Assembly: GCA_002172535.2 (NCBI GenBank)
Contig: NHFF02000005.1
Coordinates: 131,571 to 171,854 of the forward strand
Length of the DNA stretch: 40,284 bases
DNA from: Gammaproteobacteria bacterium TMED104
GTDB lineage: Bacteria > Pseudomonadota > Gammaproteobacteria > Magnimaribacterales > D2472
Direction: 5' to 3'
Below the pieces are notes generated by a model, which was not told the DNA's origin, did not search any database, and saw only the letters and a program-made list of their open reading frames with translations. The position numbers were made by a program, and so were the translations under genes. This document shows, piece after piece, positions 4,562-40,284 of the stretch. The first letter of the stretch is position 1. Every line of letters starts with the position of its first letter.

Positions 4562-4563
4562 AT

Positions 4564-15265: not shown

Positions 15266-15348
15266 TCATCGCATGCTAATATTTTTTAAAAACCTACAGA
15301 TTTTAAATTAGTAAGCTTTTTTTTGGAATTATCTTTAAAATCTAGTTA

Positions 15349-15723: not shown

Positions 15724-15727
15724 TTAG

Positions 15728-16366: not shown

Positions 16367-16378
16367 TTTAGCTATTTC

Positions 16379-18104: not shown

Positions 18105-18127
18105 GCTTGTTATCTTAATTAACTAAA

Positions 18128-18145
18128 GTGACAATTCAGTGAAAT
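18128..18145 (-). promoter_or_regulatory. Candidate Pho box upstream of the PiT gene
   Basis: Read on the minus strand, ATTTCAC-TGAA-TTGTCAC gives two 7-bp units spaced 11 bp apart, matching the PhoB consensus CTGTCAT-N4-CTGTCAT at 4 and 5 of 7 positions. It ends 24 bases before the PiT start codon, and AT-rich TTAATTAA sequence follows where a -10 would lie. The match is imperfect; it is listed because phoB-phoR lie in the same window. Confidence 0.35.
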
Positions 18146-18180
18146 AATTATGGGTTAAAGTGTAGCTAAAAATTAGGTTA

Positions 18181-18186
18181 TATAAT
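18181..18186 (+). promoter_or_regulatory. -10 element of ppk2, suggesting a leaderless transcript
   Basis: A perfect TATAAT lies only 6 bases before the ppk2 ATG (18193). The usual 6-8 base spacing places the transcript start at or next to the A of the ATG. No Shine-Dalgarno sequence is present. No good -35 is seen at 16-18 bases. Confidence 0.45.
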
Positions 18187-18192
18187 ACAAAA

Positions 18193-19029: not shown

Positions 19030-19032
19030 AAT

Positions 19033-23384: not shown

Positions 23385-23843
23385 TTAAAGATAACTAATC
23401 TTGATTTGATAGGTCTCATTATCCAACTCAATCTGAATATTCTGAACTTTAATAAAGCTTTCTTGGGAGAAAATATTAACCAGCCTTCCTAGGGTTTGCG
23501 GATCATCAATATTGAACTTTATAAGCTTTTGAGAATTTTCTTGATAAATTTGAAAGTTCAATAAGTTATATTTTTTTGAAATATTAATTAGCAAAGAGTT
23601 AATATTCTCTGAATTATTTACAAGCTGATTAAGACTGATCTTGCTTTCAATTAGATTAAATCTATCTTCAACGTAAACATAATCATTCTTTGCATTATTT
23701 AGAAGCTTTCTATTGTCTGATATATTTGATAACTGAGATATCGAAAGCATACCCAAAACTAGTAATGATGAAACCATCATAACTTGATGATATTTTTGTT
23801 GATTTTTAATGAAGGCTAAAGCTTTATTAATATAGTTAATCAT
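23385..23843 (-). CDS. gspM: Type II secretion protein GspM
   Basis: 152 residues with a cytoplasmic N-terminus, one transmembrane helix (about 21-38) and a periplasmic domain with a coiled helix followed by a ferredoxin-like fold. That is the GspM plan and normal length (about 160). GspM pairs with GspL in the inner-membrane platform. Sequence similarity is weak by eye; the assignment relies on topology and position after gspL, whose end it overlaps by 8 bp. It is the last gene of the operon. No GspN follows. Confidence 0.75.
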   Translation of the reverse strand: MINYINKALAFIKNQQKYHQVMMVSSLLVLGMLSISQLSNISDNRKLLNNAKNDYVYVEDRFNLIESKISLNQLVNNSENINSLLINISKKYNLLNFQIYQENSQKLIKFNIDDPQTLGRLVNIFSQESFIKVQNIQIELDNETYQIKISYL

Positions 23844-24990: not shown

Positions 24991-24993
24991 AAT

Positions 24994-25953
24994 TTATAAC
25001 CGATCAATAATCCTATAATTGAAATTATTTTCCTTTTTAATAAGGGTTTTAAAATTATACGAAAATCCTTGATAGCTTATTGTGCCATTAAAAAGAAAGA
25101 TATTTGAAGAGATATCTAATGCAATCGGTAGCTCTTTTTCTTGCAAATTGAATGCCTCTAAAAATTCTTTTATCGATGAGAAACCCTCAATAGGCGTTTC
25201 TTTGATCATCAAAGCAGCCTCATTCAAATTAGACTGACTTATAGCACTAGAAAGTAAATATTTATCACCATCTTGAAGACTGTTAATGTTCAAATAAAAA
25301 TTGGAGCTCATTGGAATAATGCATAATTTTTTCCATATATCACGATTTTTAATTCTGTTAATACTTGGTATTGCGAGCAATTCAGACTTATTAATAAAAA
25401 GTCTCTTGGAGGTGTATTCTCTAGGATAATGCAGTTGACTCGCATAAAAATAATTCTCTGCTCCGTTATTCCTGGGAACATCATCATCATCCATCCAATC
25501 AAGAATTTGATCAATAATTTGCTCAGTGTCCAAGTAATTTATCTCATAATTTAAGAGTAAATCCTCAAAGTATTTAATCGCTTTTAGGTTATCTTTTGAT
25601 TTTCCTGCTTTAAATGTAATTAAATGATTTACGTTAAAACAGTTTGCAAAATCGGTTAAAGAGCCCTGAAGTATGAAATCATCAAATTGAAATATGAGAT
25701 CCTCATTGAATATAGGATTTTGTTTATTAACGTTTGTATTTTTATTTAATTCTCGTTTAATAAAATTTAATAAAAACTTTTCGGACTCTATTCTTTTGGT
25801 ATGGGCAATCGCATCAAATGAAAGATAACCCTCTTTACGAATATCTAAAAAGAAAGCCTTACTCATTTCAGATGCGATTACAGACAGCATTAAAACTATA
25901 AGCATTGTAGATATGAGTACAAAGCCTTTTCTTTTTTTAAATAACATTGTCAT
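24994..25953 (-). CDS. gspK: Type II secretion minor pseudopilin GspK
   Basis: 319 residues. The prepilin leader KKRKG is followed by FVLISTMLIVLMLSVIASEM, and position +5 is Ser rather than the usual Glu, as expected for GspK, which lacks Glu5. The large globular domain includes an Asp-rich region (LDWMDDDDVPRNNGAENYFY, near 166-185) that resembles the calcium-binding and GspK-fold segment. GspK caps the pseudopilus tip with GspI and GspJ. The ATG at 25953 overlaps gspJ by 17 bp; a second ATG two codons later is possible. Confidence 0.88.
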   Translation of the reverse strand: MTMLFKKRKGFVLISTMLIVLMLSVIASEMSKAFFLDIRKEGYLSFDAIAHTKRIESEKFLLNFIKRELNKNTNVNKQNPIFNEDLIFQFDDFILQGSLTDFANCFNVNHLITFKAGKSKDNLKAIKYFEDLLLNYEINYLDTEQIIDQILDWMDDDDVPRNNGAENYFYASQLHYPREYTSKRLFINKSELLAIPSINRIKNRDIWKKLCIIPMSSNFYLNINSLQDGDKYLLSSAISQSNLNEAALMIKETPIEGFSSIKEFLEAFNLQEKELPIALDISSNIFLFNGTISYQGFSYNFKTLIKKENNFNYRIIDRL

Positions 25954-26536
25954 TATGGGTCGGTAAAATTATTTCAAATACCTCCTCTTGGCGTTGAGTA
26001 ATACTTATAGAAACAGCGTAAGGTAGTTTTCTTTTAGAAACCTCATCGTAAGGCCATACATTTAGCCAGCGCTGTTTATTATGCGCACTAATTCGAATAT
26101 CAGTAACCTCATTTAAAACAAGCACATCAAGATAATCATTAAAATCTGCAGGATTTATGCTTTTATATTCTCTTCGATAGAGCTGCTCATTTTCAATAAA
26201 ATACAAAACTCTAATATTTTTTAACTCTAAATCATCATTTAAAAAACTCTTAGTAATGAAGCTAAGCTGCTTTTCATCATCATTTAAAAAAAGGGTTTTA
26301 AATGAACTCATCCCATCAGCATTAAGCATGTCCATGTTTTGAATGAATCTAAAGTCATCCCGCAAAACCCCAAAAAAACTATTATATTTTTCTAGATAAT
26401 TTGAATTTTCCATATATAGATTTCTTTGAATAATTGAATTTTGCAAAATTGAAGTTGTAATAATAGTTATTAGTGATAGCAGAACTATCGAAATAAGTAG
26501 TTCAATTAAGGTAAATCCTTTTTGAAGTTTATCCAT
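25937..26536 (-). CDS. gspJ: Type II secretion minor pseudopilin GspJ
   Basis: 199 residues from the ATG at 26536, which overlaps gspI; a longer frame would need TTG. The type IV prepilin leader is MDKLQKG, followed by FTLIELLISIVLLSLITI with Glu at +5. The rest is a soluble pseudopilin head with DFRFIQNMDML and RREYKSINPADFND-type segments. GspJ joins GspI and GspK in the tip complex of the pseudopilus. Confidence 0.88.
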   Translation of the reverse strand: MDKLQKGFTLIELLISIVLLSLITIITTSILQNSIIQRNLYMENSNYLEKYNSFFGVLRDDFRFIQNMDMLNADGMSSFKTLFLNDDEKQLSFITKSFLNDDLELKNIRVLYFIENEQLYRREYKSINPADFNDYLDVLVLNEVTDIRISAHNKQRWLNVWPYDEVSKRKLPYAVSISITQRQEEVFEIILPTHNDNVI

Positions 26537-26882
26537 TTGCAACAATTGATTTATATTCTGAAATTACTTCATCATTCAGGTTAATTCGAATGGTAATTTG
26601 TTTTTCATTAGGTCCAGCGACACTCATCTCTTCAAACACTAGAAAAGTGTAGGAACCAAATTCATAGTTGAAAGATCTTGAGGAATTGATGCGAATGGGA
26701 TCAATGAAATTATATGAAGAGATTCGATTAATAATTATTTGTCTTGCAAATGACTTTTTTTTCATTAGCTCAAGATTGGAGTTATTGAAGGAAAGAGATT
26801 GAAATATTGCAAGCAGTGCAATACTTAATATTAAAATTGAAACACCTACCTCCAACAGACTGAAACCTTTACGAAGTTGCAT
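26529..26882 (-). CDS. gspI: Type II secretion minor pseudopilin GspI
   Basis: 117 residues, the usual GspI length. Leader MQLRKG, then FSLLEVGVSILILSIALLAIFQSL with Glu at +5, followed by a short head. It initiates the pseudopilus tip with GspJ and GspK. The ATG overlaps gspH by 14 bp, and its end overlaps gspJ by 8 bp. Confidence 0.88.
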   Translation of the reverse strand: MQLRKGFSLLEVGVSILILSIALLAIFQSLSFNNSNLELMKKKSFARQIIINRISSYNFIDPIRINSSRSFNYEFGSYTFLVFEEMSVAGPNEKQITIRINLNDEVISEYKSIVANG

Positions 26883-27348
26883 TTAATTCTCCAAATATGT
26901 CGTAATAAATTTTTTGATCTTGATCTAAAAATTCGATTTCAAGACCAGAGTTTCTTCCGCTAGGAAAAAAAATTATTAGAAATGATCTATCTTTATTCTC
27001 AAGAAATGTGTTGTTAAATGAATCAAAAGCATAATTCTTTAGAATAGTATTCAAGTCAAATTCTAGAATTCCATAATTTTTCCAAGAGCCATCATCATAG
27101 AAAACTAAACTATATTTATCATTATTTTTCTCAATTGCTATTGGCTTTCTAATAAGTTGGCTTTCTTGCTTTAAGGCATTGAAGAGTTCATTGATTTGAG
27201 TGGGCCCTCCTTCTTGGTATCCGCTCATAAAAGATGAATTGATAAATGGTATTAATGAAATTATTCCTATGATTAACAGGACCAATAACAGCTCTATTAA
27301 TGTAAAGCCTTTAGTTTGAGTTGATATCCCAGTTGCCAAAGTCTGCAT
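26869..27348 (-). CDS. gspH: Type II secretion minor pseudopilin GspH
   Basis: About 159 residues. The prepilin leader from the chosen ATG is MQTLATGISTQTKG, cleaved before FTLIELLLVLLIIGIISLIP, with Glu at +5. This leader is longer than usual because the start lies 38 bp inside the end of gspG; TTG at 27339 would give a shorter one, and TTG at 27357 a longer one. The head has a KNRDRSFLIIFFPSG-type GspH beta region near 115-140. GspH connects the pseudopilus shaft to the tip complex. Confidence 0.85.
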   Translation of the reverse strand: MQTLATGISTQTKGFTLIELLLVLLIIGIISLIPFINSSFMSGYQEGGPTQINELFNALKQESQLIRKPIAIEKNNDKYSLVFYDDGSWKNYGILEFDLNTILKNYAFDSFNNTFLENKDRSFLIIFFPSGRNSGLEIEFLDQDQKIYYDIFGELNATS

Positions 27349-27739
27349 CCTCGCCAACTCCTCCCTCTACACCGTCAGCACCTAGAGTGTAAATATCGTA
27401 TGAAATATTATTGATACCAGGTGATAGATATAAATAATCATTGCCCCAGGGGTCCATAGGAACATCACTAATATAGCCATCTATAGGATACAAGAAAGGT
27501 CTTTTAAGATCTGTTGGAGGTTTTTTTAAGGAAATAAGTCCTTGATCTGTTGTGGGATATTTAAGTTCATTAAATTTGTAAAGCTCAAGGGCTTTTTCTA
27601 TCTGTGAAATATCAGCTCTAATTTTTTCAAAATTAGCTCTTTGAAGGAATGGGGATACATTTATCGCTACAACGGTCGCTAGAATGCCCAGAATGACAAT
27701 AACTGCCATAAGTTCGATTAATGTAAAGCCTTTTTTCAT
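27311..27739 (-). CDS. gspG: Type II secretion major pseudopilin GspG
   Basis: 142 residues, the standard length. Leader MKKG, then FTLIELMAVIVILGILATVVA with Glu at +5. The head contains the conserved GspG sequence YPTTDQGL, PMDPWGNDYLY and a C-terminal calcium-loop region GADGVEGGVGEDADFGNWD. It polymerises into the pseudopilus that pushes exoproteins through the secretin. The start is one base into the overlap with gspF. High expression relative to the neighbours would be expected, but nothing in the sequence shows it. Confidence 0.95.
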   Translation of the reverse strand: MKKGFTLIELMAVIVILGILATVVAINVSPFLQRANFEKIRADISQIEKALELYKFNELKYPTTDQGLISLKKPPTDLKRPFLYPIDGYISDVPMDPWGNDYLYLSPGINNISYDIYTLGADGVEGGVGEDADFGNWDINSN

Positions 27740-28929
27740 TACGATAAAAAAGAATTATTCATTTGCATGATTGGCAAAAGTATTGCCAATATAATTAGTG
27801 TAATTATACCACCCATAATTATTAATATTAGCGGCTCAATAATGGATAGTAATGATGATCTGGAGTTATCAATTTCATCTTTAAAATAAAATGCCAATTT
27901 TTCAAACATTTCCAATAATGACCCAGACTGGAAGCCACTGGATAATAGTTGAATAAAGATTTCAGGAAATATTTTTGCTTGCTTGATTTTATATAAAAAA
28001 TCTTTGCCCTCGATAATATCATCTGTTGCGTCCTTAATAATTGTACTGATGTAAACGTTATTAATTAACTTATTTGCATGGTTTAAGGATTGATCAAGAT
28101 TGATACCAGATTTGAGCATTATAAACATGACTCGACTAAACTTTTCTAATTCACTAATTAGTAAAAACCTTCCTATAAATGGGATTTTTAGCAAAAGTTT
28201 ATGTATGTTTAATTCTCTTGAGGTTCCTGAGATATTTTTCCTATAGTAAAAGTAGGAACCCATAATAAGAAGAAAAATTACTCCAACAAATATAAAAATA
28301 TTATTTGAAATAAAGATCATTAAAGAAGTTAAGAAAGGAAGCTCAATATTTGATTTTATAAACTGCTGTGTCACCTGCGGTAAAACAAAAATAAGAAGAG
28401 CGATTACAACCAATACAGAAAAACCAATTACAAGGATTGGGTAAGCTAGAGCCGAAAAAATTTTCTGCTTTATTGAAATTTCATCTTCTAGGTAATCTGA
28501 TAGATTCTTAAAGGCTTCAACCAAGTTTCCTGAGATTTCTCCCGCGGCAACGAGTGAAATATAGGTCTGATCAAAGCTTTCTGGGTAATCAGATAAAATT
28601 AGATGCAACTGCCTACCTTGCTGTAACTCAGTACCAATATGATTAAATAAATCGCCAATTTTTGAGTTTGAATTTTTACCAATTGATTGTAAGGCTTTAT
28701 CAAGGGGTATACCTGAGCCTATCAGCGAAGAGATTTGTCTGGTTGCAATGGCAACATCTTTTCGAGCTATTTTTTTACCTTTAGCTCCTTTGGATGTTTC
28801 TCTGATATTTAAAAGTAATAAGTTTTTTGATTTTATTTCTTGCCTTGCTGCTCTTTCGTTATCGGAGCGCAAAATACCTCTTAAAGACTTACCCTCCTCA
28901 TTTTGAGCAACATATTGATAATTAGGCAT
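27739..28929 (-). CDS. gspF: Type II secretion inner-membrane platform protein GspF
   Basis: 396 residues with the GspF duplicated cytoplasmic helical domains and three transmembrane segments (near 160-190, 215-235 and 365-390). The N-terminus, PNYQYVAQNEEGKSLRG, and the conserved patterns RQISSLIGSGIPLDKAL, ALAYPILVIGFSVLVV and SGINLDQSL are typical. GspF is the polytopic core that couples the GspE ATPase to pseudopilus assembly. It overlaps gspE by 8 bp. Confidence 0.94.
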   Translation of the reverse strand: MPNYQYVAQNEEGKSLRGILRSDNERAARQEIKSKNLLLLNIRETSKGAKGKKIARKDVAIATRQISSLIGSGIPLDKALQSIGKNSNSKIGDLFNHIGTELQQGRQLHLILSDYPESFDQTYISLVAAGEISGNLVEAFKNLSDYLEDEISIKQKIFSALAYPILVIGFSVLVVIALLIFVLPQVTQQFIKSNIELPFLTSLMIFISNNIFIFVGVIFLLIMGSYFYYRKNISGTSRELNIHKLLLKIPFIGRFLLISELEKFSRVMFIMLKSGINLDQSLNHANKLINNVYISTIIKDATDDIIEGKDFLYKIKQAKIFPEIFIQLLSSGFQSGSLLEMFEKLAFYFKDEIDNSRSSLLSIIEPLILIIMGGIITLIILAILLPIMQMNNSFLS

Positions 28930-30412
28930 CTGATATATTCTGTAACCTTACTATTTCACCAATGCTTGTGATTCCATTTTCAAGATTTAATTTAATTGAT
29001 TCTTGGATGGATGGATTGTTTTGGAATGCATAGTCATTCATCATTTTTTCTGATGCGCCGTCATGAATCATTTGTTTAAGAGTTTCATCTACTTCTACTA
29101 ACTCAGCAATAGCAAGCCTTCCGGAGTATCCCGTAAAGGAGCATTCCTGACACCCACTTGGTTCGTAATATGAATTCTCAGAGCTTAAATTAAATCTAGT
29201 TAATAGATTTGTATTCTCTTCTGAGGGTTTCTTACAATGATTGCAAAGCCTGCGTACAAGTCTTTGGGCTAATACCACCCTAATACTAGAGGCCAATAGA
29301 TATGATTCCACGCCCATATCTCTGAGTCTTGCTATCGCTCCAATTGCGCTGTTGGTATGAATGGTAGATAAAACTAGATGTCCGGTTAAACTGGCTTGAA
29401 TTGCAATACTTGCAGTTTCGGAGTCCCGTATCTCACCAACCATGACAATGTCGGGATCTTGTCGCAGTATCGACCTTAGCCCGCTTGCAAACGTGTAGCC
29501 GGATCTTGTATTTACTTGAGTTTGTCCAACTCCTGCGAGTGTATATTCAACGGGATCTTCAACAGTCAGAATATTTTGTGAATTGTCATTAATTTCCCGC
29601 AAACCAGCATATAAAGTTGTGGTTTTGCCAGATCCTGTAGGTCCTGTTACCAGAATAATCCCTTCGTTAGATTTTAGTGCTTTTCGATAATTAGCGTTCA
29701 CGTAATCAGAGAATCCAAGATTATTTAAATCTATTTCAGCTGAATCTTTATCGAGCAATCTTAGTACCACTCTTTCACCATAGGATGATGGTAGTGTCGA
29801 AACCCTCACATCAATAGATTGAGGACCGAGCGAAAGAGATACCCTTCCATCCTGAGGTTTTCTCCTTTCAGCAATATCTAACTTAGACATTATTTTTAAT
29901 CGAGAAACAATTGGAGGTGATAACCTTGAATCTTGAGAAATGAGTTCTCGCATTACTCCATCTATTCTTAGTCTAACAATAAATGCGTCTTCATAGGGTT
30001 CAAAGTGAATATCTGATGCTTTTGCTTTAATGGCTTGACTTAGAATGCCATTAATTAGTTTTATAATAGGCGCATCATTATTCCCCTGAAGTAGATCTTC
30101 AGACGGTGTGATCGTTTTTGCATATGATTCAAGATCAAATGATTCAGAAAGCTCTTCTCCAATAGATTCCTGAAGTTTATCTTGTGAGTAAAGTTTAGTT
30201 AGACCCTTTTCAAACTCATTAGGGCTACATAGGTTAGTAACAAAATTCTTCCCTGGAAATGCTGAATAAAATTCCTGAATGGATAGTGAGCTAAGTTCGT
30301 TTTCAGAAAAAATATGAACCTCACCATTAATATCTACTCCCAAGATTCTTTGGGACTTTGAATATTCGTATGGAAATAATGGCTTATGTTCCTTAGTGAT
30401 TAACTGGTCCAT
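28922..30412 (-). CDS. gspE: Type II secretion ATPase GspE
   Basis: 496 residues. Walker A is GPTGSGKTT (257-265), the Asp box is ILTVEDPVEY (281-290), Walker B is IVMVGEIRD (322-330) and the His box is around GHLVLSTIHTN (344-354). A tetracysteine zinc module is complete: C390, C393, C421 and C424. The N-terminal domain that binds GspL is short. This hexameric cytoplasmic ATPase powers secretion. All catalytic elements look intact. The gene begins at the gspD stop with a one-base overlap. Confidence 0.96.
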   Translation of the reverse strand: MDQLITKEHKPLFPYEYSKSQRILGVDINGEVHIFSENELSSLSIQEFYSAFPGKNFVTNLCSPNEFEKGLTKLYSQDKLQESIGEELSESFDLESYAKTITPSEDLLQGNNDAPIIKLINGILSQAIKAKASDIHFEPYEDAFIVRLRIDGVMRELISQDSRLSPPIVSRLKIMSKLDIAERRKPQDGRVSLSLGPQSIDVRVSTLPSSYGERVVLRLLDKDSAEIDLNNLGFSDYVNANYRKALKSNEGIILVTGPTGSGKTTTLYAGLREINDNSQNILTVEDPVEYTLAGVGQTQVNTRSGYTFASGLRSILRQDPDIVMVGEIRDSETASIAIQASLTGHLVLSTIHTNSAIGAIARLRDMGVESYLLASSIRVVLAQRLVRRLCNHCKKPSEENTNLLTRFNLSSENSYYEPSGCQECSFTGYSGRLAIAELVEVDETLKQMIHDGASEKMMNDYAFQNNPSIQESIKLNLENGITSIGEIVRLQNISDA

Positions 30413-32253
30413 TAAGGTTTTATAGTTAAATCTATAATGTCAGATTTCGCGCCATCTAAGAGTCTTGCAGCTTCAATATAATTATATTTCTCATTTGAAA
30501 GTTCCATTACATCATTGCTATCAAAAAGAATGGTTGGTCTAATGAAGACTAACAGATTGCGCTTAACTCTTGATTGAGATGATGTTTTGAAGAGGTTGCC
30601 GACTACTGGGATAGCCCCTAAAAATGGAACCCTCGATTCAGAGCTTTGTATATCATCATCAATCAATCCACCAAGTACAATCACTTGGTTATTATCAACA
30701 AGTACGGTTGTTTCTATGGTTCTTTTGTTGGTTATAAGGTCAGCGGTCCCAGTTAATGGACCAACAACCCCAGAAACCTCTTGGTTGATATTTAAAATCA
30801 CACTATTACCCTCATTGATCTGAGGAACAATAGAAAGTTTAATGCCTACCTCTTGTCGTGAAGTTGTTCTAAATGGATTAGCATTATTTGCACCCAAACT
30901 TTCTCCAGTGGTAATTGGTATTTCTTGACCTATGACAAGATTAGCTTGTTCATTATCCATGGCAATGACCGATGGCGTCGACAATATGTTTGAATCTTGA
31001 TCATTTGCAATTGCGCTAATAATGGTTGCAAAACTATCACCATTTGAATCGATGCTTCCTACACCAGCAATCAGTCCCTGGGTATTAAGTAAAGATGATG
31101 CACCAATGTTTCTAAGAGTTACATCGTTACCCGACTCAGCAGCTGAGCCTGCCAGTGCTAACAAATCAGGTGAATTTGAATTTTGAAAACGAGTAATCCC
31201 TAATGGCACATCACCGTCCTCCCCGCCTGCAAATACAGTTTCGACTCCTAGTGATTTTGCAGCTGTCTCAGATAACTCTACTATGATTGCTTCGACAAGT
31301 ACTTGTGCTCTCCTGATATCTAACTTTGATATGAGATTACGTATGACATCTAGATTTGCTTGCTCGGTTGATACAATAATAGAGTTGGTTTTTTCGTGAA
31401 AAGTAACCACAGGCTTTTCAGATGATTCAGAGTTAGAAAAACGTGCTGAAACAGTATTTAATATTGTAGAAACTTCTTCGGCCTTAGCATATTTTAAATA
31501 AATTACCGCGACTGAACTGTCATTCAATGCATCTTTATCCAACGCCTCTAAGGTTTGAGTTATGTTATTAGTTACAAAATTATTTGCTGAAAGGATTACT
31601 GAATTAGAAGTCGGAAATGGTACGGCTATAAAATTATTAATGGTTGGATTTTCTTGAAGTTTTAAGCGCTCTAAAATCCTGACAGCCTCAATGGAAGATA
31701 AATTTTCAAGTTTAATGATTGAAATACCTGCAGAGTTATCCTTGTCTAATTGATCTATTAAAGTTTCAATTCTCTGAACATTTGATAATTTATCTACAAT
31801 TAAAATAGAATTCACTGAAGGAATACTAGATAGATATGACTGCCGGCCAGTTATGGGTTTTAGCATTGGTAAAATACCACCAGCAGAACGATTAACTAAA
31901 GGTATGATTTTTGTAGTAAAGTCACCATCATTAGATATATCAGTATCATCACGGGTGGCATCATTTTCTGGCACTATTCTTACAATATCACCGTCAGAAA
32001 TTGCTGAAAAACCACTAACCTGAATAGTTCTTAAATAGACCTCCCAAACTTGTTGAGATGTAAGAATAGTATCTGAAAAGATAGAAACTCTTCCCTTAAC
32101 CCTAGGATCAAGAATCAATGTCTTATTCGAAAAGCTAGCGACGTCTTGCGTAACTTTCTTTAAATCGACATCATCATAATTAAGTATGTATGTCTCTTGA
32201 GCGTCAATAAAAAAAGGAATAAGTAAGGTAAAAATAGTAAATTTTTTGATCAT
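30412..32253 (-). CDS. gspD: Type II secretion outer-membrane secretin GspD
   Basis: 613 residues with a signal peptide (MIKKFTIFTLLIPFFIDA, cleavage before Q). The N0 domain starts at YILNYDDVDLKKVTQDVASF, then come N1 to N3 repeats (for example IIKLENLSSIEAVRILERL), then the secretin domain with GQEIPITTG and VPFLGAIPVVGNLFK near 540-557. It lacks a lipobox, so it depends on a pilotin or self-inserts; no pilotin gene is seen. The C-terminal part after the secretin domain is about 50 residues and could be an S-domain-like tail. It forms the outer-membrane exit channel. Confidence 0.95.
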   Translation of the reverse strand: MIKKFTIFTLLIPFFIDAQETYILNYDDVDLKKVTQDVASFSNKTLILDPRVKGRVSIFSDTILTSQQVWEVYLRTIQVSGFSAISDGDIVRIVPENDATRDDTDISNDGDFTTKIIPLVNRSAGGILPMLKPITGRQSYLSSIPSVNSILIVDKLSNVQRIETLIDQLDKDNSAGISIIKLENLSSIEAVRILERLKLQENPTINNFIAVPFPTSNSVILSANNFVTNNITQTLEALDKDALNDSSVAVIYLKYAKAEEVSTILNTVSARFSNSESSEKPVVTFHEKTNSIIVSTEQANLDVIRNLISKLDIRRAQVLVEAIIVELSETAAKSLGVETVFAGGEDGDVPLGITRFQNSNSPDLLALAGSAAESGNDVTLRNIGASSLLNTQGLIAGVGSIDSNGDSFATIISAIANDQDSNILSTPSVIAMDNEQANLVIGQEIPITTGESLGANNANPFRTTSRQEVGIKLSIVPQINEGNSVILNINQEVSGVVGPLTGTADLITNKRTIETTVLVDNNQVIVLGGLIDDDIQSSESRVPFLGAIPVVGNLFKTSSQSRVKRNLLVFIRPTILFDSNDVMELSNEKYNYIEAARLLDGAKSDIIDLTIKP

Positions 32254-32648
32254 CTGCTTTCTATTTTTATATACCTCTTTTGTCCTGCCCTATCAAAGAC
32301 TATTTCATCTGTGCTTACTGAAATGAGCCTATAAGTATTATCAATTAGCTCACCTTGCTGCACAACATAATCAACATTATTTTTTCTTAGGACTACTGAG
32401 CTATTTTTTTTTCCAGCCCTGTATCCAACAATTGTATAGGAAAATTCATCATCCGATAATTGTGTGGCATTTTGATTAAGATTGTTTTGAGATAAGTCAT
32501 TTATTACCGTAGCAGACATGTTTAAAGGGGTAGATTTCTTAAATTTTGGAGCATTTATAATTAAATATAATTGGTAAAAAACCAAAACTGTAACCAGTAA
32601 AATTAAAAGATAAAAAACTATCTTCTTTAGTAAATTTAAAATTTCCAT
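32250..32648 (-). CDS. gspC: Type II secretion protein GspC (short, without PDZ domain)
   Basis: 132 residues: one transmembrane helix (about 9-31), a linker, then the homology region DEFSYTIVGYRAGKKNSSVVLRK-like sequence followed by VQQGELI and IVFDRAGQKRYI. The C-terminal PDZ domain of longer GspC proteins is missing. GspC links the inner-membrane platform to GspD through the homology region. The start ATG at 32648 comes 2 bases after the terminator of the preceding gene, with no Shine-Dalgarno sequence at a normal distance. It overlaps gspD by 4 bp. Confidence 0.85.
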   Translation of the reverse strand: MEILNLLKKIVFYLLILLVTVLVFYQLYLIINAPKFKKSTPLNMSATVINDLSQNNLNQNATQLSDDEFSYTIVGYRAGKKNSSVVLRKNNVDYVVQQGELIDNTYRLISVSTDEIVFDRAGQKRYIKIESR

Positions 32649-32697: not shown

Positions 32698-35298
32698 TTA
32701 GAAATTATATTTTAACCCGATAGATATAGATGTCCCTAAATCATACTGATCATAGAAAATGTTATCTGCCATAGTTGCCTCGTAAGACTCATCAAGAATA
32801 TTTCTAATTTCGACTGAAAGTTTCAAAGTATTATCTTCAACATCAAATATCCTAGAATATACGAAGTCAAGTGTTGTAGGAACTTCCTCGATTATGTCTG
32901 GAAGAACATCAATACCTCTAGCCCTAACTCTATCATCCACATAATTCAAAATGAAAGTAGCCTGAGAGTTAGCAAGATAATCATTAAAACCTAGCTGAAA
33001 ATTGACGATATTATCTGCTTGACCTTGTAACCTAGGATCTCTTCCGTTCGCCAATAAGGATGAAGCAGAAACGGTTGCACCGACAAGGTTTACATATGTA
33101 TCGCCATCCCCTACTACAATTTCAGAATCTGTAAAAGTATAGTTAAATTTAACTAAAACTTCTTTACTAGATAGCCAAGCCGATTCAAAACCATCAAAAA
33201 CTCTTTCATATTCAAATTCAAAGCCATTTATTTCAGCGAGAGGAACGTTTTGATATGAAGTAATAACAAGATCTCCAATTTCAGAAACAGATTCTTCAAT
33301 GGGATTTTGAATCTCTTTATAAAAAGCACCAAGCGTAATAAATTGGTTCTGGCCAAAATAATATTCAGCTCGTAGATCAATATTATCTATCTCAGAATTT
33401 TGAAGGTATAAAGATCCTGCGATAACTCTATCAGTATCAACATCAACAAAAAGTGTTGGGGATAATTCTCTGAAAGTAGGTCTTGCAATCGTTTGAGAAA
33501 ATCCAAGCCTAACTTGAAGGTTTTCATAGTCTTCAGGAAGATATGTCAGAGTTAAACTGGGTAACGCATAGTCCTCATCAATAGTCTTATCAATGGTATT
33601 GTCTTTACCTGTAAATAGATCATACGTATTAATTTCTTGTGTTCCATCTTCACTTCTGATTCCTGCGGAAACTTTGAATTCATTAGATACTAGGGCCTCT
33701 AAAGAAGCATAATAAGCTGTTGTTTCAAGCTCTCCCTCATATCCTGCTGGAGATGAAGAACCTGTATTTTCAATTACATACAATCTATTTGGATCCAGAT
33801 TTTGATCTGCAAAAATATAATCAACTCTTTTGCTAAGAAGCTCATCTGGTAAAGGTCCTCCCGCGGCAAGAAATCTAAAGCTCCTTACCTCAGCCTCTCT
33901 GTCATTTACTTTATGATCAATACCAACTTTAAAAATTAAGTCGGTAGAATCAGTTTCAATGGGAATTGTAAGATCCAATCCAACGTTAAAAACATCGTCA
34001 TCAACGCTACTGAATTGGGTCTGATTCCTACCGGTATTAACGTCATAAAGGTAAATGCCATCATTATCACTATCTTCATAAAAAACAGATCTTTCATATG
34101 GTGCGTCTCTACTTGCTGATCCAAAAGAAACTCTTCCATCCAAAACCATATCGTTTTCAAATATTTTATCAAAGCTAAGTTGATTATTAATTAAGGTTCT
34201 ATCAAAGAATTCAATATAATCCTCTCGAATATTTGCTGCATCACTTGGATCAAAACCAGTAATTGATCTCGCTTCTTTAGTTCCTTTATGAATATACAGA
34301 GATGTCCATTTTGCTTCGGCTGTATCTGATTCAACTCCAAAAACACCCATGCCGTAAGTTGTGACATCATTTGAAGTAGAAATAAATGTTTTATCTTCAG
34401 CTTTAATAACTGAAGCTGTGCCATCACTATTTGCTTGAAGGTCACCGGTTTGCCTCAGACCATCCTGAGTTTGCCACGATGATCTTACTCCAGCGGTAAG
34501 AAGGAAACCAGAAGTTAATCCATTTCCTAGATCCCAATCAAGTTGATCACCGAAGGTCACGTTAAAAGAATTATCAACAGGCACATCACCGTCTTGGATG
34601 ACCCATAATTTTGAATTTTCAAATTCTCTAGCAATATTAGCAAGCTGATAGGGTTCGAAATTTGACCTATCAATTTTAGTGCCACCTGCAATGGCCCGAC
34701 CTACTGAGTCAGGATAGTCCCTCGTACCGTCGTCATAACCCCAATCATCATCACCACCACCGTCATAGAGAAGACCTCCTGTTAATGAAGTAACTGAGTT
34801 ATATCCAGACGAAAAAGAAACCGAGAGGATTCTCTCAAGAGGTACGGCTTTAGTTTCTATTGCAATCATGCCACCACCGAATTCTCCATTCATATCAGCT
34901 GAATATGTCTTTTGAACAATTGCTGACTCAATTGCTTCAGTAGGAAACAAATCGAGAGGAACAACTCTTTTAAGAGGTTCGGGGCTAGGCAATACGCCAC
35001 CATTTAATGTGGCAGCAGAGTAACGCTCACCTAAACCTCTCACATAAACATACTTGCCTCTTACCAAGCTAAGACCTGTAAGCCTGGTAAGTGCTACGGC
35101 AATGTTATCATCTCCAGTTCTCTCAATTTCAGAACTGTCAAGAACAACATTAATCTCAGTGGTATCCCTCTTTTCATCTGGAATGAAAGAACCGCTCACA
35201 ACTACTTCCTCAATCTCTTGTGCTGAGATTGAGGTAGTAAGTAGCAACAAGGGTAAGAGAGTTTTATAGCCAACCTTTTTACTTCTAAATGTATTCAT
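32698..35298 (-). CDS. TonB-dependent outer-membrane receptor, lipoprotein-linked
   Basis: An 866-residue receptor. Signal peptide 1-27 (cleavage at SISA-Q), TonB-box-like EEVVV (30-34), a plug domain with RLTGLSLVRGKYVYVRGLGERYS-type sequence and SPEPLKRVVPLDLFP, and a barrel that ends in the terminal Phe motif (GLKYNF). The sequence YSADMNGEFGGGMIAIETK is typical of the plug end in this group. It follows the duplicated lipoprotein gene by 26 bp, with AGGAG before the ATG, and ends in a strong terminator. By analogy with SusC/SusD-like or phosphate-starvation receptor pairs, the lipoprotein may be its surface partner. The ligand is unknown; a phosphorus compound is suggested by the PhoBR context. 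Confidence 0.9.
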   Translation of the reverse strand: MNTFRSKKVGYKTLLPLLLLTTSISAQEIEEVVVSGSFIPDEKRDTTEINVVLDSSEIERTGDDNIAVALTRLTGLSLVRGKYVYVRGLGERYSAATLNGGVLPSPEPLKRVVPLDLFPTEAIESAIVQKTYSADMNGEFGGGMIAIETKAVPLERILSVSFSSGYNSVTSLTGGLLYDGGGDDDWGYDDGTRDYPDSVGRAIAGGTKIDRSNFEPYQLANIAREFENSKLWVIQDGDVPVDNSFNVTFGDQLDWDLGNGLTSGFLLTAGVRSSWQTQDGLRQTGDLQANSDGTASVIKAEDKTFISTSNDVTTYGMGVFGVESDTAEAKWTSLYIHKGTKEARSITGFDPSDAANIREDYIEFFDRTLINNQLSFDKIFENDMVLDGRVSFGSASRDAPYERSVFYEDSDNDGIYLYDVNTGRNQTQFSSVDDDVFNVGLDLTIPIETDSTDLIFKVGIDHKVNDREAEVRSFRFLAAGGPLPDELLSKRVDYIFADQNLDPNRLYVIENTGSSSPAGYEGELETTAYYASLEALVSNEFKVSAGIRSEDGTQEINTYDLFTGKDNTIDKTIDEDYALPSLTLTYLPEDYENLQVRLGFSQTIARPTFRELSPTLFVDVDTDRVIAGSLYLQNSEIDNIDLRAEYYFGQNQFITLGAFYKEIQNPIEESVSEIGDLVITSYQNVPLAEINGFEFEYERVFDGFESAWLSSKEVLVKFNYTFTDSEIVVGDGDTYVNLVGATVSASSLLANGRDPRLQGQADNIVNFQLGFNDYLANSQATFILNYVDDRVRARGIDVLPDIIEEVPTTLDFVYSRIFDVEDNTLKLSVEIRNILDESYEATMADNIFYDQYDLGTSISIGLKYNF

Positions 35299-35324
35299 TG
35301 GTAACTCCTATTTTGTACCCTTAA

Positions 35325-38192
35325 TTAATTTAAGCTTCCAGCAACAGTCCATCCTTTATACCAAGTATCAGTAGAGTCTTTGACAGCACCTACATAATCA
35401 GTAGTTGTAAAGAATGTGTCAGCTGATTTATCAGTAACGGTCATTGCATTCTCAGCAGTACCATTAATCACCCCTGAAACTGTTGGGACATATGCACCTC
35501 CACCGGAATCAGCAGAGTAAAGGTTATTACTTCCTGCAGTTACCAAAGCTTCAGCCTGAGCAAGTGTTCCAGCTTCATCACCAAGTGCTGCAAGAGCTTT
35601 ACAATCAAAAGCTACGGAGTTGAATGTAACCTTTGGTGTTGTTGCAGCGTCCTGAAAAGTTTCAGCCTTTGTAGTCTCGATACAAGCTTTGCTGTTAGAT
35701 GCATCTATGACAATACCATTTGTATATATACCTGAAACACCTTCTTTAAGCTTGATAACGTCATCCTTACCGTTACTAATAAAGGTAAAGTTTGAAATAA
35801 TTGGTTGAGATCTTGGTTCTGTTAAATAGCCAACAGCAGCATCCGCGTTGGTATTGTCTGACTCAACTATGTGATCACCAGCATCGGATGATTGCTTAAC
35901 AATTACAAATTGTAACTTGCCTTGGTAACCCCAATCGATGTCAAGATTATCATCACCGGCTCCAGTACAGATTAAGTATTTGACATTAACCGTGCCGCCA
36001 AAGAATTCAACACAATCATCTTGATTATTATGAACCTGGACATACTCAACTGTCGTTCCTGAGCCAACTCCTCCAAATGTTATACCATTAAGTTCGTTGC
36101 CTGGAAAAATTTCATAACCAGCATACTGAACTCTTAAATATTTTAATGATCCACTTGAGTCATCAGCAACATTTCCACCCATTAGCGCATCAGATGAACC
36201 CTCAACTACTTTTTCACAAGCAGCTGTTCCACGAACATCATTAGAACATTTATTAATTGGTGCTTGGCCAAGTAAGACTAATCCACCCCAAAGACCTCTT
36301 GAAAATTGTGTGGCTTGGCCTGTCACATCATCTCTTCCGGTCATTATAATTGGAGCTGATTTGGTTCCATTAGCAATTAGCTGTGAACCTCGCATAACAA
36401 TAAGATAGTCCGACCCAGATTCACCAAAAACAGTAACTCCAGGCTCAATGGTTAAGGTAGCACTGGCCCCACCAGTTTTTGTTCCATCACCACCCATATC
36501 TTCTCCAACTTGCACTTTTCCTACGAGTTTGTAGAAGTTGCCTCTCGATAGGGTTACATCACTTGTTAAAGTTCCCTGAACACTGCAAACTTTTTTACCT
36601 TCTAATTGTTCAGATTCAAAAGTTCCAGCCGGACATTCTGGAGCAGTAAATAGACCTTTAGTCCATCCAGCTGCCCAGTTATTATCCTCATCAGATCCTG
36701 GAGCGAAAGCACCAATGTAATTTGTTTTAGCGAAGAAGCCATCGATTTGAGTTGCATCACTTGGACACAAGTTTGACGTTCCACTCGTATGAGAACCGAT
36801 TGCACAAACATTAGTTTGATTTGTAAATGCAGAAGCAATTCCTGACTCATTAGTTCCTAGAAACATCTGACCAACCAGTGTATTGGTTTGGTTGGTGACT
36901 AGATTAGTTGCTCTAGACTCTATAGAAGCTTGTAATTCTGCAACTGTAGCAGAATCATCACCGGCATTATAAACACCACCGGTTCCACAATCCATGAACA
37001 CTGAATGGTGAGCAATTTTGTCATAACCAGGCGCGTCTTGAAGCGTTTCTGCCTTAGTATGTTCAATACAACCCTTATCGCCAGAACTGACAACAATACC
37101 ATTCATATACATCCCAGATACACCTTCTTTATATTTAAGTGCTTCATCTCTACCGGTTGAAAGGAAAGTAAAGTTTGCTATTTTTGGTTGAGATCTTGGA
37201 GTTGTTAAATATCCAACTGCGGCATCAGCATTAGTGTTATCTGACTCTACAATGTGGTCACCGGCACCCCTAGATTGTTTAACGACAACGTACTGCATTT
37301 TACCTGTATAACCCCAATCTATATCAAGGTTGTCATCACCAGCACCGGTACACACTAAATGAGTTACATTGACTGTTCCTCCAAAAAATTCAACACAGTC
37401 ATCTTGATTGTTATGAACTTGAATATAATTAACAGTAGTCCCTGAGCCAACTCCTCCAAACGTAATTCCATTTAACTCATTACCGGGAAATATTTCGTAA
37501 CCGGCATACTCAACTCGAACAAACCTAAGTGTTCCAGAATTATCACCTGGTGTAGCACCACCCATAAGTGCATCTGTTGCACCTTCAACTAATTTTTCAC
37601 AATTTGCAGTTCCACGGACATCGTTTGCACATTTATTAATTGGAGCTTTTCCTAAGATCACTAGTCCACCCCAGAGTCCACTAGCAGTATCTGGATTTGA
37701 GAGAGTGCCATCCAATACAGACGAATGTGTAAAGACAATTGGTTTAGATGCAGTACCCTTGGCTTCAATTTTTGATCCTCTTTGAACTACAAGATAGTCA
37801 GCAGAAGTCTTAGATACAATTGTTACTCCAGCTGGGATGTTTAAGACACCAGCAGCTCCACCTGTTTTTGTTCCATCTCCACCCATGTCTGAACCAACAT
37901 TAACGGTTCCACTGAGTCTATAAATTACATCATCTGTAAGTGTTAAATCACCTGTGATTGTTCCTGAAATGGCACAAACAGTATTTCCACCGATACTGTC
38001 ATCAACATCTACGTTGCTTACATTAGGGCAAGTTCCAGTAAGAACAGACCCTCCAACAACCACTTGTTGATCAGCAGCAGTTGGTGCTGCAACTTGACCT
38101 AATTCACCCGGTGAACTTATTGAGGTACTTCCACCTCCGCCACAAGAAACTAAAATAAAAAGACTAAATAAAGAAAATAAACGCAAATACAT
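35325..38192 (-). CDS. Large surface lipoprotein with duplicated beta-helix-like domain (ElpS-like candidate)
   Basis: 955 residues from the ATG at 38192, chosen because GAGGAG lies just upstream and a lipobox, ILVSC (13-17), follows; an upstream ATG at 38222 would put the ribosome site inside the gene. After a Gly/Ser spacer come two homologous halves (about 55-510 and 520-955). Each carries GYEIFPGNELNGITFGG, HNNQDDCVEFFGG, GAGDDNLDIDWGY and GDHIVESDNTNADAAVGY, conserved Cys pairs, and a closing Y-x-GA...W...GW motif. A right-handed beta-helix is likely. Position beside phoBR, a TonB receptor and T2SS genes resembles the phosphate-starvation lipoprotein ElpS of Caulobacter; homology is not verified. 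Acidic clusters could bind metal or be catalytic. Confidence 0.7.
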   Translation of the reverse strand: MYLRLFSLFSLFILVSCGGGGSTSISSPGELGQVAAPTAADQQVVVGGSVLTGTCPNVSNVDVDDSIGGNTVCAISGTITGDLTLTDDVIYRLSGTVNVGSDMGGDGTKTGGAAGVLNIPAGVTIVSKTSADYLVVQRGSKIEAKGTASKPIVFTHSSVLDGTLSNPDTASGLWGGLVILGKAPINKCANDVRGTANCEKLVEGATDALMGGATPGDNSGTLRFVRVEYAGYEIFPGNELNGITFGGVGSGTTVNYIQVHNNQDDCVEFFGGTVNVTHLVCTGAGDDNLDIDWGYTGKMQYVVVKQSRGAGDHIVESDNTNADAAVGYLTTPRSQPKIANFTFLSTGRDEALKYKEGVSGMYMNGIVVSSGDKGCIEHTKAETLQDAPGYDKIAHHSVFMDCGTGGVYNAGDDSATVAELQASIESRATNLVTNQTNTLVGQMFLGTNESGIASAFTNQTNVCAIGSHTSGTSNLCPSDATQIDGFFAKTNYIGAFAPGSDEDNNWAAGWTKGLFTAPECPAGTFESEQLEGKKVCSVQGTLTSDVTLSRGNFYKLVGKVQVGEDMGGDGTKTGGASATLTIEPGVTVFGESGSDYLIVMRGSQLIANGTKSAPIIMTGRDDVTGQATQFSRGLWGGLVLLGQAPINKCSNDVRGTAACEKVVEGSSDALMGGNVADDSSGSLKYLRVQYAGYEIFPGNELNGITFGGVGSGTTVEYVQVHNNQDDCVEFFGGTVNVKYLICTGAGDDNLDIDWGYQGKLQFVIVKQSSDAGDHIVESDNTNADAAVGYLTEPRSQPIISNFTFISNGKDDVIKLKEGVSGIYTNGIVIDASNSKACIETTKAETFQDAATTPKVTFNSVAFDCKALAALGDEAGTLAQAEALVTAGSNNLYSADSGGGAYVPTVSGVINGTAENAMTVTDKSADTFFTTTDYVGAVKDSTDTWYKGWTVAGSLN
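35328..36635 (-). repeat. Second copy of the internal domain in the large lipoprotein gene
   Basis: This is the second protein-level repeat (residues 520-955), starting at CPAGTF. The offset to the first copy is 461 codons. The DNA of the two copies differs mainly at third codon positions, so the duplication is old and kept under protein-level selection. Confidence 0.8.
36663..38030 (-). repeat. First copy of the internal domain in the large lipoprotein gene
   Basis: First protein-level repeat (residues 55-510), starting at CPNVSN and ending in the Y-x-GA...W...GW motif. Four long peptide blocks are shared almost unchanged with the second copy. Confidence 0.8.
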
Positions 38193-38279: not shown

Positions 38280-38286
38280 GTGACAG
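38280..38286 (-). promoter_or_regulatory. Possible PhoB half-site before the large lipoprotein gene
   Basis: The 105-bp gap between phoR and the lipoprotein gene contains CTGTCAC on the minus strand (complement of 38280-38286), a 6 of 7 match to the Pho-box unit, about 90 bases before the ATG. The 11-bp neighbours (TTTTTAC and TTTTTTC) match poorly, and GTTCACA lies 22 bp further on. No terminator is visible after phoR, so readthrough is also possible. Confidence 0.25.
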
Positions 38287-38297
38287 CTCTGTAAAAA

Positions 38298-40052
38298 CTA
38301 TTTGCTCTTAAGAGTGAACCAAAATCTTGATCCACCATTTTTTCTAGGCATTACACCGACCTCACCGCCTAGTTGATTTACAAGATGTTTGACAATTGCT
38401 AGTCCAAGACCGCTACCTTGTTTGGATTCTGCTCTAGCTTTTGCAGTTCTATAAAATCTATTGAAGACTAAGCTTGATTCCTCAGGAGTTAAACCTGATC
38501 CGGAATCGAGAATGGATACTCTATAGAAGTCGTCTTGCTTTCTGAGCTTGATATCTATTTTAGAATTTTTAGAGCTATACTTAATTGAATTTTCTAATAA
38601 GTTATTGAGAACTTGTTCTAAAGCTCCATGATCGGCTTTAACAATTGCTTCACCTGCATAGTCAAATACAAATTTAATATCTTTTTCTGCAGCCAAGCTA
38701 GTCATAGCTTCCATCACTCGATGAATTTTATTTTTTAGATCAACATCCTCTAAATTAAACTGCTTATCTCCGTATTCGATTCGAGACAAGTCGATCAAAT
38801 TTGAGACCATTTCCGTTAGTCTCTCAGAATTATGTAAGATTGCTTTTGTAAATTTATTTGCATCCTTTGGATGATCTAAAGCACCATCCAGCAAAGTTTC
38901 AGAGTTAGCTCTGATAACGCTTACTGGCGTTCTAAGCTCATGAGATAAATTTGCAACAAAATCTCTTCTCATCGAGTCCATATCCCTCAATTGAGTTTCA
39001 TCATGCAGCACTAAAATAAACTCTTTCGTGGCTTTTGCAGCATTCATCTGGGCAAGTATCCATTTATTACCAAGCTTGCTTTCAATCTCAAACTCCATTG
39101 CGTATTTACCCTTTTTTTTTGCCTGGTCAAACATAAGCTTAATCGGTTGAAGATTTAAATCATCAATACTTATGTTAAGAAGATCACTAACTTCGAGAAT
39201 ATTTAATGCTTCATCATTATTAAAGTTAACTATTCCAAGTTCATCGAAAACAACAATACCTTCTCCAAGATCATTCAGCACAGAACCAAATTGATTTCTT
39301 TGTTTAGCAAGTAGGGTCAGTTGATTTTTTAAATCAACAGATATTGAAGAAAGACTTCGAGCAACTGAGCCAATCTCATCAACTCGTTTTGTTGGCAGCG
39401 ATTTTATGGTCTTCTTTTTTAAGTCTCCTGATTCCAATCTAGTAACGGCACGCTCAAGTTCTAAAAAATTCTCACGCGTATAGTTTCCTGCAATGATGCC
39501 TGCCATTATAGAAGCAATTAAAGCCACTACTAAAATTAAAATAACTGATGTATTAAGGGATCTAAATGCTTGATCAAAATAGATATATGGAACGGCTAAC
39601 CTTATAACACCCTGTTGACCCGCAGATGGATCTAAGATTGCGAAGTAAAGCATTTCCTGTTGAACAGTATCGCTAAACCTCCTACTCCAGCCCATTCCAT
39701 TATTCTGAGCATCGATAACCTCAGGCCTGTTGGAATGATTGTCAATCAAATTCAGATCATCAACATCAATATTTGAATCACTTATAACAACACCAGATGA
39801 GTTAATTAATGTAACTCTAGATTGTGATGCCTCTGCAAAAACATCAATTTCATCTTTAAGTGAATTCAGGTCGGTGTATTGAGAGAGTGAGCCAAGAGAC
39901 GATTGAATGATTTGACCTTGTTTTTGAAGCTCAATCTGTATTTGATTCTGTAAACTAGCTCCTAAATCTCTTTCAGCAACTATAAAAGCAAACAGTAGAC
40001 CCATCGATAGGCAGGACATTACAATAATAAATATCCTTCCTCTTATGCTCAT
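38298..40052 (-). CDS. phoR: Phosphate-regulon-type sensor histidine kinase PhoR with large periplasmic domain
   Basis: 584 residues. Transmembrane helix 1 is at about 7-25, a periplasmic domain spans about 30-165 with a PAS/Cache-like strand (RVTLINSSGVVISDSN, 79-94), helix 2 is at about 168-189, then HAMP (about 190-245), PAS (about 250-355), HisKA with the phospho-acceptor H371 in SHELRTPVS, and a HATPase domain with N484/N487, DSGSG (516-520) and GSGLGL (547-552). All catalytic motifs are intact. E. coli PhoR (431 residues) has almost no periplasmic domain, so this architecture is more like that of Bacillus and other long PhoR proteins. It is 5 bp downstream of phoB. It would phosphorylate PhoB when phosphate is low; direct periplasmic sensing is possible. 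Confidence 0.85.
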   Translation of the reverse strand: MSIRGRIFIIVMSCLSMGLLFAFIVAERDLGASLQNQIQIELQKQGQIIQSSLGSLSQYTDLNSLKDEIDVFAEASQSRVTLINSSGVVISDSNIDVDDLNLIDNHSNRPEVIDAQNNGMGWSRRFSDTVQQEMLYFAILDPSAGQQGVIRLAVPYIYFDQAFRSLNTSVILILVVALIASIMAGIIAGNYTRENFLELERAVTRLESGDLKKKTIKSLPTKRVDEIGSVARSLSSISVDLKNQLTLLAKQRNQFGSVLNDLGEGIVVFDELGIVNFNNDEALNILEVSDLLNISIDDLNLQPIKLMFDQAKKKGKYAMEFEIESKLGNKWILAQMNAAKATKEFILVLHDETQLRDMDSMRRDFVANLSHELRTPVSVIRANSETLLDGALDHPKDANKFTKAILHNSERLTEMVSNLIDLSRIEYGDKQFNLEDVDLKNKIHRVMEAMTSLAAEKDIKFVFDYAGEAIVKADHGALEQVLNNLLENSIKYSSKNSKIDIKLRKQDDFYRVSILDSGSGLTPEESSLVFNRFYRTAKARAESKQGSGLGLAIVKHLVNQLGGEVGVMPRKNGGSRFWFTLKSK

Positions 40053-40057: not shown

Positions 40058-40284
40058 TTAATCTGGATTTCTAGAAAAACGATAGCCAACACCTCTTATG
40101 GTTTGAATATAGTCTCCCACAGGGCCTAATTTTTCTCGAAGCCTTTTGATATGCGTATCTACTGTTCTAGTAGTAACTTCAGAACTATAACCCCAAACAT
40201 CTCCAAGAAGCTGATCTCTGGTTTGGACTCTACCTCTCCTATCAAGCAGATGTTTAAGCAATCTGAATTCTAAAGCAGTTAAAA
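40058..40284 (-). CDS. phoB: Response regulator PhoB, C-terminal DNA-binding domain (partial)
   Basis: The gene enters from the right edge; only the last 75 codons are present, and the receiver domain is outside the window. The visible part is an OmpR/PhoB winged helix: LTALEFRLLKHLL, GRVQTRDQLLGDVWG, the recognition helix TRTVDTHIKRLREKL and the wing QTIRGVGYRFSR. Adjacency to phoR (5 bp) and the sequence of the recognition helix favour PhoB over other OmpR-type regulators. PhoB activates phosphate-starvation genes through Pho boxes; candidate sites are listed before the PiT gene, the large lipoprotein gene and the TetR gene. Confidence 0.85.
   Translation of the reverse strand, partial: LTALEFRLLKHLLDRRGRVQTRDQLLGDVWGYSSEVTTRTVDTHIKRLREKLGPVGDYIQTIRGVGYRFSRNPD

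What the first reader, a model, noticed from the sequence alone, without database searches (positions are those of the whole stretch)
32698..38192. Duplicated lipoprotein plus TonB receptor wedged between phoBR and a T2SS: a possible ElpS-type system
Seen: phoB-phoR, a large lipoprotein, a TonB receptor, then gspC-M, all on one strand. Known: in Caulobacter the phosphate-starvation lipoprotein ElpS is encoded next to a T2SS, is displayed at the surface and is released in a T2SS-dependent way. Inferred: this is an equivalent system in a gammaproteobacterium, with the lipoprotein acting as capture or hydrolysis partner of the receptor.
Basis: partly seen in the sequence, partly recalled or inferred. 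Interest (0 to 1): 0.7.

Follow-up and report, generated by a model that had tools for sequence, protein, structure and literature searches.

The report
Phosphate-starvation surface lipoprotein and secretion cassette
A small-genome marine bacterium, probably a SAR86, carries a relative of Caulobacter's phosphate-starvation surface lipoprotein ElpS, with its receptor and a secretion machine, as one exchangeable block inside its phosphate-scavenging genes; the kind is known, but its make-up and mobility here make its unknown role testable.

Summary
The 955-aa lipoprotein is two tandem ~430-aa repeats (54% identical). Each matches the Caulobacter vibrioides ElpS orthologue at 38-39% identity (best E 7e-89), with the same gene order (lipoprotein, TonB receptor, gsp genes). 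The receptor follows in 132 of 138 homologous loci examined. Xanthomonas has the locus too, so a gammaproteobacterial case is not new.

Further results:
- AlphaFold gives two confident beta-helices, not a phosphatase fold. No Pfam model covers the family.
- Pho-box repeats are enriched upstream of the lipoprotein orthologues (z 8.6) and of a phytase-receptor pair (z 10), not upstream of control genes.
- Window 10.9-40.3 kb is a phosphate island.
- Two same-genus genomes lack the cassette, with ppx and phoR adjacent, and also lack gspG and prepilin peptidase.
- The cassette has crossed between families.
- PstB occurs in only 4 of 61 relatives and PhoU in none of 10 tested, so how PhoR senses phosphate there is open.

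Surface display, release and ligand transfer are inferred from Caulobacter or untested. Verdict: a new member of a known kind; identity well supported, mechanism open.

The parts
35328..38192 (-). ElpS-type outer-membrane lipoprotein, 955 aa: signal peptide with lipobox LVSC, SPGE tether motif, two ~430-aa beta-helix repeats
32698..35298 (-). Partner TonB-dependent receptor, 866 aa, orthologue of the Caulobacter receptor behind elpS (39% over 846 aa)
23385..32648 (-). Type II secretion genes gspC, D, E, F, G, H, I, J, K, L, M; the prepilin peptidase is on another contig (G000:C35)
   Evidence: gspL, gspM and gspC rest on position and relatives more than on Pfam
38280..38297 (-). Pho-box-like direct repeat TTTTTACAGAGCTGTCAC, 87 nt before the lipoprotein start, directly behind the phoR stop
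   Evidence: weak on its own, enrichment shown over orthologues
38298..40052 (-). PhoR-like sensor kinase, 584 aa, with a large extracytoplasmic region
40105..40284 (-). C-terminal end of a PhoB-like response regulator (cut by the window end)
   Evidence: the full protein was not classified against a family model
19887..23287 (-). Two further genes in this copy of the insert: a 349-aa cadherin-type lipoprotein and a 783-aa protein with a signal peptide; absent from the sister genome G002
10937..14537 (-). Beta-propeller phytase (PF02333) with its own TonB receptor; Pho-box-like site TTGACATGCTTCTGACAC 42 nt before the receptor start
14681..19890 (.). Rest of the phosphate island: TetR-like regulator, ArsC-like LMWPc protein, MIP channel, SnoaL-like protein, Pit-type phosphate transporter, PPK2, Ppx/GppA

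Best explanation
This is an ElpS-type phosphate-starvation cassette in a SAR86-like gammaproteobacterium. Shown by computation: lipoprotein and receptor are orthologous to Caulobacter ElpS and its neighbour, in the same order in front of the T2SS genes, inside a phosphate gene island beside phoBR, and the block is present or absent among close relatives and exchanged between lineages. Strongly suggested: PhoB switches the lipoprotein on in phosphate limitation. Inferred from Caulobacter: the lipoprotein is lipidated (here at Cys17), shown on the cell surface by a T2SS-independent route, and can be cut off its tether by a protease that the T2SS exports. Inferred here: the two beta-helix domains, each with an invariant acidic ladder (D264 D265 E268 D286 D287 D290; D725 D726 E729 D747 D748 D751), bind a phosphorus-bearing ligand, perhaps through a divalent cation, and pass it to the partner receptor, while the T2SS exports hydrolases that free phosphate.
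For: ElpS homology and identical order. Near-invariant lipoprotein-receptor pairing, 132/138 loci. Association with T2SS: 49/57 v. 172/340 genomes, p 2e-7, and 26/28 v. 18/33 among relatives, p 0.001; related genomes are not independent. Phosphate island in all four families of the order. Pho-box enrichment upstream of the lipoprotein, z 8.6, and of the phytase receptor, z 10.1, with negative controls; Pho boxes between phoR and gspC in lipoprotein-less relatives. Caulobacter: elpS induced by phosphate starvation, surface exposed, released in a T2SS-dependent way (PMC2996285), T2SS in the PhoB regulon (PMC11208175). Fold and conserved acids. Empty site and mobility.
Against: No experiment in this organism. 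The window's own Pho box is weak. phoBR adjacency is not general. The lipoprotein-receptor pair can sit apart from the T2SS, or be missing while the T2SS stays. The Caulobacter study found no effect of deleting cc0171 on ElpS production and no measurable change in phosphate uptake. No ligand or complex is known.
Confidence: 0.65

Rival explanations
1. The lipoprotein does not feed the receptor. It is a releasable extracellular factor, cut free by a T2SS-exported protease, that binds or stimulates secreted phosphatases or phytase; receptor and lipoprotein are linked only because both belong to the phosphate response.
For: In Caulobacter, ElpS is released and its overproduction raises phosphatase activity in the medium (PMC2996285). 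T2SS association is significant.
Against: The receptor pairing (132/138) is tighter than the T2SS pairing (81/138), which fits the receptor as the main partner.
Confidence: 0.2
2. The pair takes up something other than phosphorus (for example a glycan or metal complex); phosphate control is a local habit of this order.
For: The fold is that of many glycan-active proteins. Most homologues outside the order are not beside phoBR.
Against: Phosphate induction of elpS in Caulobacter (PMC2996285); Pho-box enrichment; phosphate genes around the pair in four families.
Confidence: 0.12
3. The lipoprotein is a surface adhesin or shield made in phosphate stress, and the receptor linkage is incidental.
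For: Structural hits include Antigen 43 and phage tailspikes; repeat duplication is common in the family.
Against: Near-invariant pairing with one receptor clade and invariant acidic residues point to a specific ligand site.
Confidence: 0.05

Closest known systems
Caulobacter crescentus ElpS (cc0170) with TonB receptor cc0171 and gspC-N (PMC2996285)
   Same: Homologous lipoprotein and receptor, same gene order and strand, lipobox, SPGE tether motif, T2SS behind them, phosphate-starvation context
   Different: Here the lipoprotein has two beta-helix repeats instead of one, phoBR lies directly upstream, no gspN was found, and the block sits in a phosphate island and is exchanged between lineages
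Xanthomonas and Brevundimonas/Phenylobacterium ElpS-type loci
   Same: Lipoprotein, receptor, T2SS in that order
   Different: Single repeat; no phoR directly upstream in the named set
SusC/SusD nutrient-uptake pairs of Bacteroidota (from general knowledge)
   Same: A surface lipoprotein encoded beside a TonB-dependent transporter
   Different: SusD is an alpha-helical repeat protein; this lipoprotein is a predicted beta-helix with no SusD match. A possible analogue, not a member
Pseudomonas aeruginosa Hxc T2SS, induced by phosphate limitation (from general knowledge)
   Same: A T2SS tied to the phosphate response
   Different: Different locus make-up; here the cassette's T2SS is the only one detected (a single gspG)

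Membership tests
ElpS-type system | Sequence homology of the lipoprotein to ElpS | tested here: met
   39% over 449 aa, E 7e-89, to the C. vibrioides T5M6 orthologue; the CB15N sequence itself was not available
ElpS-type system | Lipoprotein signal (SPII lipobox) and no Asp at +2 | tested here: met
   LVSC-GGGG, Cys17
ElpS-type system | TonB receptor homologous to cc0171 directly downstream | tested here: met
   39% over 846 aa, same order
ElpS-type system | T2SS gene cluster adjacent | tested here: met
   gspC-M directly behind the receptor; prepilin peptidase elsewhere in the genome
ElpS-type system | Induction by phosphate starvation | tested here: inconclusive
   Pho-box enrichment over orthologues, z 8.6; the window's own site is weak; expression cannot be tested
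ElpS-type system | Surface exposure and T2SS-dependent release | not testable with these tools
   Known only for Caulobacter (PMC2996285)
ElpS-type system | Raises extracellular phosphatase activity | not testable with these tools
   No phosphatase domain or fold; an indirect effect is not excluded
SusC/SusD pair | SusD family sequence or fold | tested here: not met
   No SusD model matched; predicted parallel beta-helix
Canonical PhoBR-Pst-PhoU phosphate signalling | PstSCAB and PhoU present with PhoBR | tested here: not met
   PstB in 4 of 61 relatives and not in the window's genome (71% complete); PhoU in 0 of 10

The most novel reading that the evidence does not exclude
SAR86 runs a PhoBR regulon without Pst or PhoU whose outer-membrane arm is a horizontally exchanged ElpS-receptor-T2SS cassette. 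PhoR must then read a signal other than Pst-PhoU, for example a periplasmic ligand, and the double beta-helix lipoprotein with its receptor is a new kind of phosphorus-capture pair.
Probability: 0.3. Interest if true: 0.75.

Novelty: new member of a known kind. Interest (0 to 1): 0.55.

Why it matters
ElpS-type proteins occur in about one in seven sampled Pseudomonadota genomes (57 of 397 strong matches), yet have no Pfam model, no solved relative found by sequence and no known ligand. Finding them in what is probably one of the ocean's most abundant groups, as an exchangeable block inside the phosphate genes, gives natural with/without comparisons between close relatives. The lack of PstB in most of these genomes, and of PhoU in those tested, raises a clean question: what does PhoR sense in them?

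Tried and rejected
Domain look-ups (Pfam, NCBIfam, PHROGs, PDB sequences) gave nothing for the lipoprotein. A plain consensus count for Pho boxes with single-base shuffles was not significant for the window alone (p 0.26). The enrichment rests on orthologues and two matrices: the first was set after seeing the lipoprotein promoters, the second was written from remembered E. coli sites and gave the same result; the phytase-receptor promoters had not been inspected beforehand. I first read the 95% identity to G040, of another family, as a gift from that family; the trees show the reverse. Binning error was rejected: cassette and flanks lie on one 181-kb contig and the same order recurs in G002. 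Mutual exclusion of the lipoprotein and PstB (0/28 v. 4/33) is not significant (p 0.12). Searches failed on wrong coordinates. Structure prediction takes single chains only, so the lipoprotein-receptor complex was not modelled.

Full report
Observation. The ORF tool's 965-aa call includes ten extra upstream residues; relatives begin at MYLRL or its equivalent. The lipoprotein is an internal duplication, 54% identical over about 450 residues.

Identity. No Pfam, NCBIfam or PDB sequence convincingly matches the lipoprotein or 37 homologous stretches. A profile from close relatives finds 62 of 397 sampled Pseudomonadota genomes, of which 57 are strong. A named scan returned Caulobacter vibrioides T5M6, other Caulobacter, Brevundimonas, Phenylobacterium, Asticcacaulis and many Xanthomonas. 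Against the C. vibrioides protein the second repeat scores 39% identity over 449 aa (E 7e-89) and the first 38%; the receptor is 39% over 846 aa; gspC through gspJ follow. The Caulobacter protein has the LAGC lipobox and about the 50-kDa size reported for ElpS (PMC2996285). I did not have the CB15N sequence itself; species, synteny and lipobox support the orthology.

Pairing. The receptor lies directly behind the lipoprotein in 18/18 order-level relatives, 36/40 loci of the even sample and 78/80 named loci; T2SS genes follow in 12, 14 and 55. The four unpaired loci of the sample are distant members without a clear lipobox; three of them (L086, L087, L097) have a TBDR upstream instead. phoR directly upstream is frequent only in the window's order.

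Organism. The window's order comprises four families and 18 genera of 0.8-1.8 Mb genomes in the sample, the composition reported for SAR86 in GTDB (PMC11582366). I infer SAR86, with the window in its largest family. This is an inference, not a label.

Phosphate island. Window 10.9-40.3 kb holds a beta-propeller phytase with its own TonB receptor, a TetR-like gene, an ArsC-like reductase, an aquaporin-family channel, a Pit transporter, PPK2, Ppx, then the cassette and phoBR. Many of the same genes recur, reshuffled, around the homologues in all four families.

Regulation. A Pho-box matrix scores far above dinucleotide shuffles upstream of the lipoprotein (mean 8.3 v. 1.9 bits, z 8.6, 13 regions) and of the phytase receptor (12.2 v. 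2.1, z 10.1, 8 regions), weakly upstream of pit (z 2.7) and the channel (z 3.3), and not upstream of phoR, ppk2, ppx, acs, gspD, gspE, gspK, sdr1 or the partner receptor. The window's own lipoprotein site is weak and not significant alone. In relatives that have the T2SS but no lipoprotein, phoR is still followed by gspC, and in four of seven regions the gap holds strong boxes such as ATGTCACATAAATGTCAC. These four genomes are related, so they are not independent, and the boxes stand before a small ORF rather than directly before gspC.

Mobility. Same-genus genomes G001 and G006 carry the flanking genes at 86-100% protein identity (phytase pair 75-79%) but have ppx and phoR side by side with no cassette, and lack gspG and prepilin peptidase. 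In G005 the resident ppx-phoR junction is also empty, while its cassette copy lies elsewhere, flanked by a 50-residue end of phoR and a 76-residue end of ppx, as if it had carried its old borders along. G040, of another family, has a cassette whose lipoprotein is 95% identical to the window's although its pit, ppk2 and phoR are 53, 55 and 32%; trees of the lipoprotein, gspD and gspE put it with the window and G002 (support 1.0), next to other members of the window's family, while its phoR, pit and ppk2 fall elsewhere. G002's gspL and gspM drop to 64 and 55% after a 93% gspK, which looks like a recombination edge. Whether G001 and G006 lost the block or never had it is not settled.

Fold. AlphaFold with 29 sequences gives pLDDT 87 and pTM 0.83, with a disordered first 48 residues; the second repeat alone with 38 sequences gives 94 and 0.93. 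Both repeats are strand ladders whose Foldseek hits are right-handed parallel beta-helices: PL6 lyases, tailspikes, Antigen 43, AlgE4, Pel9A. The hits are weak (for the single repeat none below E 0.001, best TM-scores near 0.36-0.39), so the fold class is clear but there is no close structural relative. Invariant residues over the homologues include a ladder of acids (repeat 2: D725, D726, E729, D747, D748, D751). A cation or ligand site there is my inference.

Tether. In 104 of 138 homologues an SPG motif follows the lipidated cysteine, in 103 of them 7-10 residues behind it, in an otherwise low-complexity tether. ElpS is cut before Asn38 (PMC2996285), which in the T5M6 sequence falls just behind this motif; numbering differs by a few residues, so the placing is approximate.

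Function. The best reading is a PhoB-driven, surface-anchored double beta-helix that serves its partner receptor, with a T2SS that exports phosphate-freeing enzymes and perhaps the protease that cuts the tether. Homology, order, island, fold class and mobility are shown computationally; PhoB control is strongly suggested; display, release and transfer are borrowed from Caulobacter or inferred.

Side question. PstB was found in 4 of 61 relatives and PhoU in none of 10 tested, including single-contig genomes; PMC11582366 also notes that Pst is uncommon in SAR86. PhoR then lacks its usual inputs. This, more than the ElpS homology, may surprise a specialist.

Noticed in passing
window 10937-19890: Phosphate island beside the finding: phytase plus TonB receptor, ArsC-like reductase and MIP channel (a possible arsenate detoxification pair), Pit, PPK2, Ppx.
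   Followed up: partly
G001-G060: PhoBR without Pst or PhoU: PstB in 4 of 61 order-level relatives, PhoU in none of 10 tested. In G041 and G059 the pstB gene lies a few kb upstream of the T2SS, near where the lipoprotein-receptor pair sits in others.
   Followed up: partly
L200:9488-9574(-), L202:9767-9853(+), L203:8701-8787(-), L210:9487-9573(+): A conserved 28-aa ORF (MIKSIWNKFHSFMKSGRLNKVIKISGIK-like) behind strong Pho boxes between phoR and gspC, only in genomes without the lipoprotein-receptor pair: a candidate PhoB-controlled small protein.
   Followed up: partly
L023:227-454 and 15556-15705; L197:16056-16068: In G005 the cassette copy is flanked by fragments of ppx and phoR while the intact ppx-phoR junction elsewhere is empty: a trace of relocation.
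   Followed up: partly
window 19887-23287: A 783-aa protein with a signal peptide and a 349-aa cadherin-type lipoprotein lie between gspM and ppx in this genome but not in sister G002; the 783-aa protein has only partial, weak matches to long ORFs in 12 relatives. Possible T2SS cargo.
   Followed up: partly
lipoprotein residues 26-29 (window about 38106-38117): SPG(E) tether motif 7-10 residues behind the lipidated Cys in 103 of 138 homologues, close to the reported ElpS cleavage site: a candidate surface-display or processing signal.
   Followed up: partly
G000:C35:38289-38606, G005:C1:493915-494235, G040:C1:736772-737086: Prepilin peptidase (PF01478) is present in all 8 tested genomes with the T2SS and absent from the two without it; in G005 and G040 it lies next to the cassette.
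   Followed up: yes
L086, L087, L092, L097: Distant family members without a clear lipobox, three of them behind rather than in front of a TonB receptor: possibly a secreted, non-lipidated branch.
   Followed up: no
window 245-10936: Fatty-acid or CoA catabolism genes (enoyl-CoA hydratases, thiolase, AMP-binding ligase, two short-chain dehydrogenases) adjoin the phosphate island.
   Followed up: no
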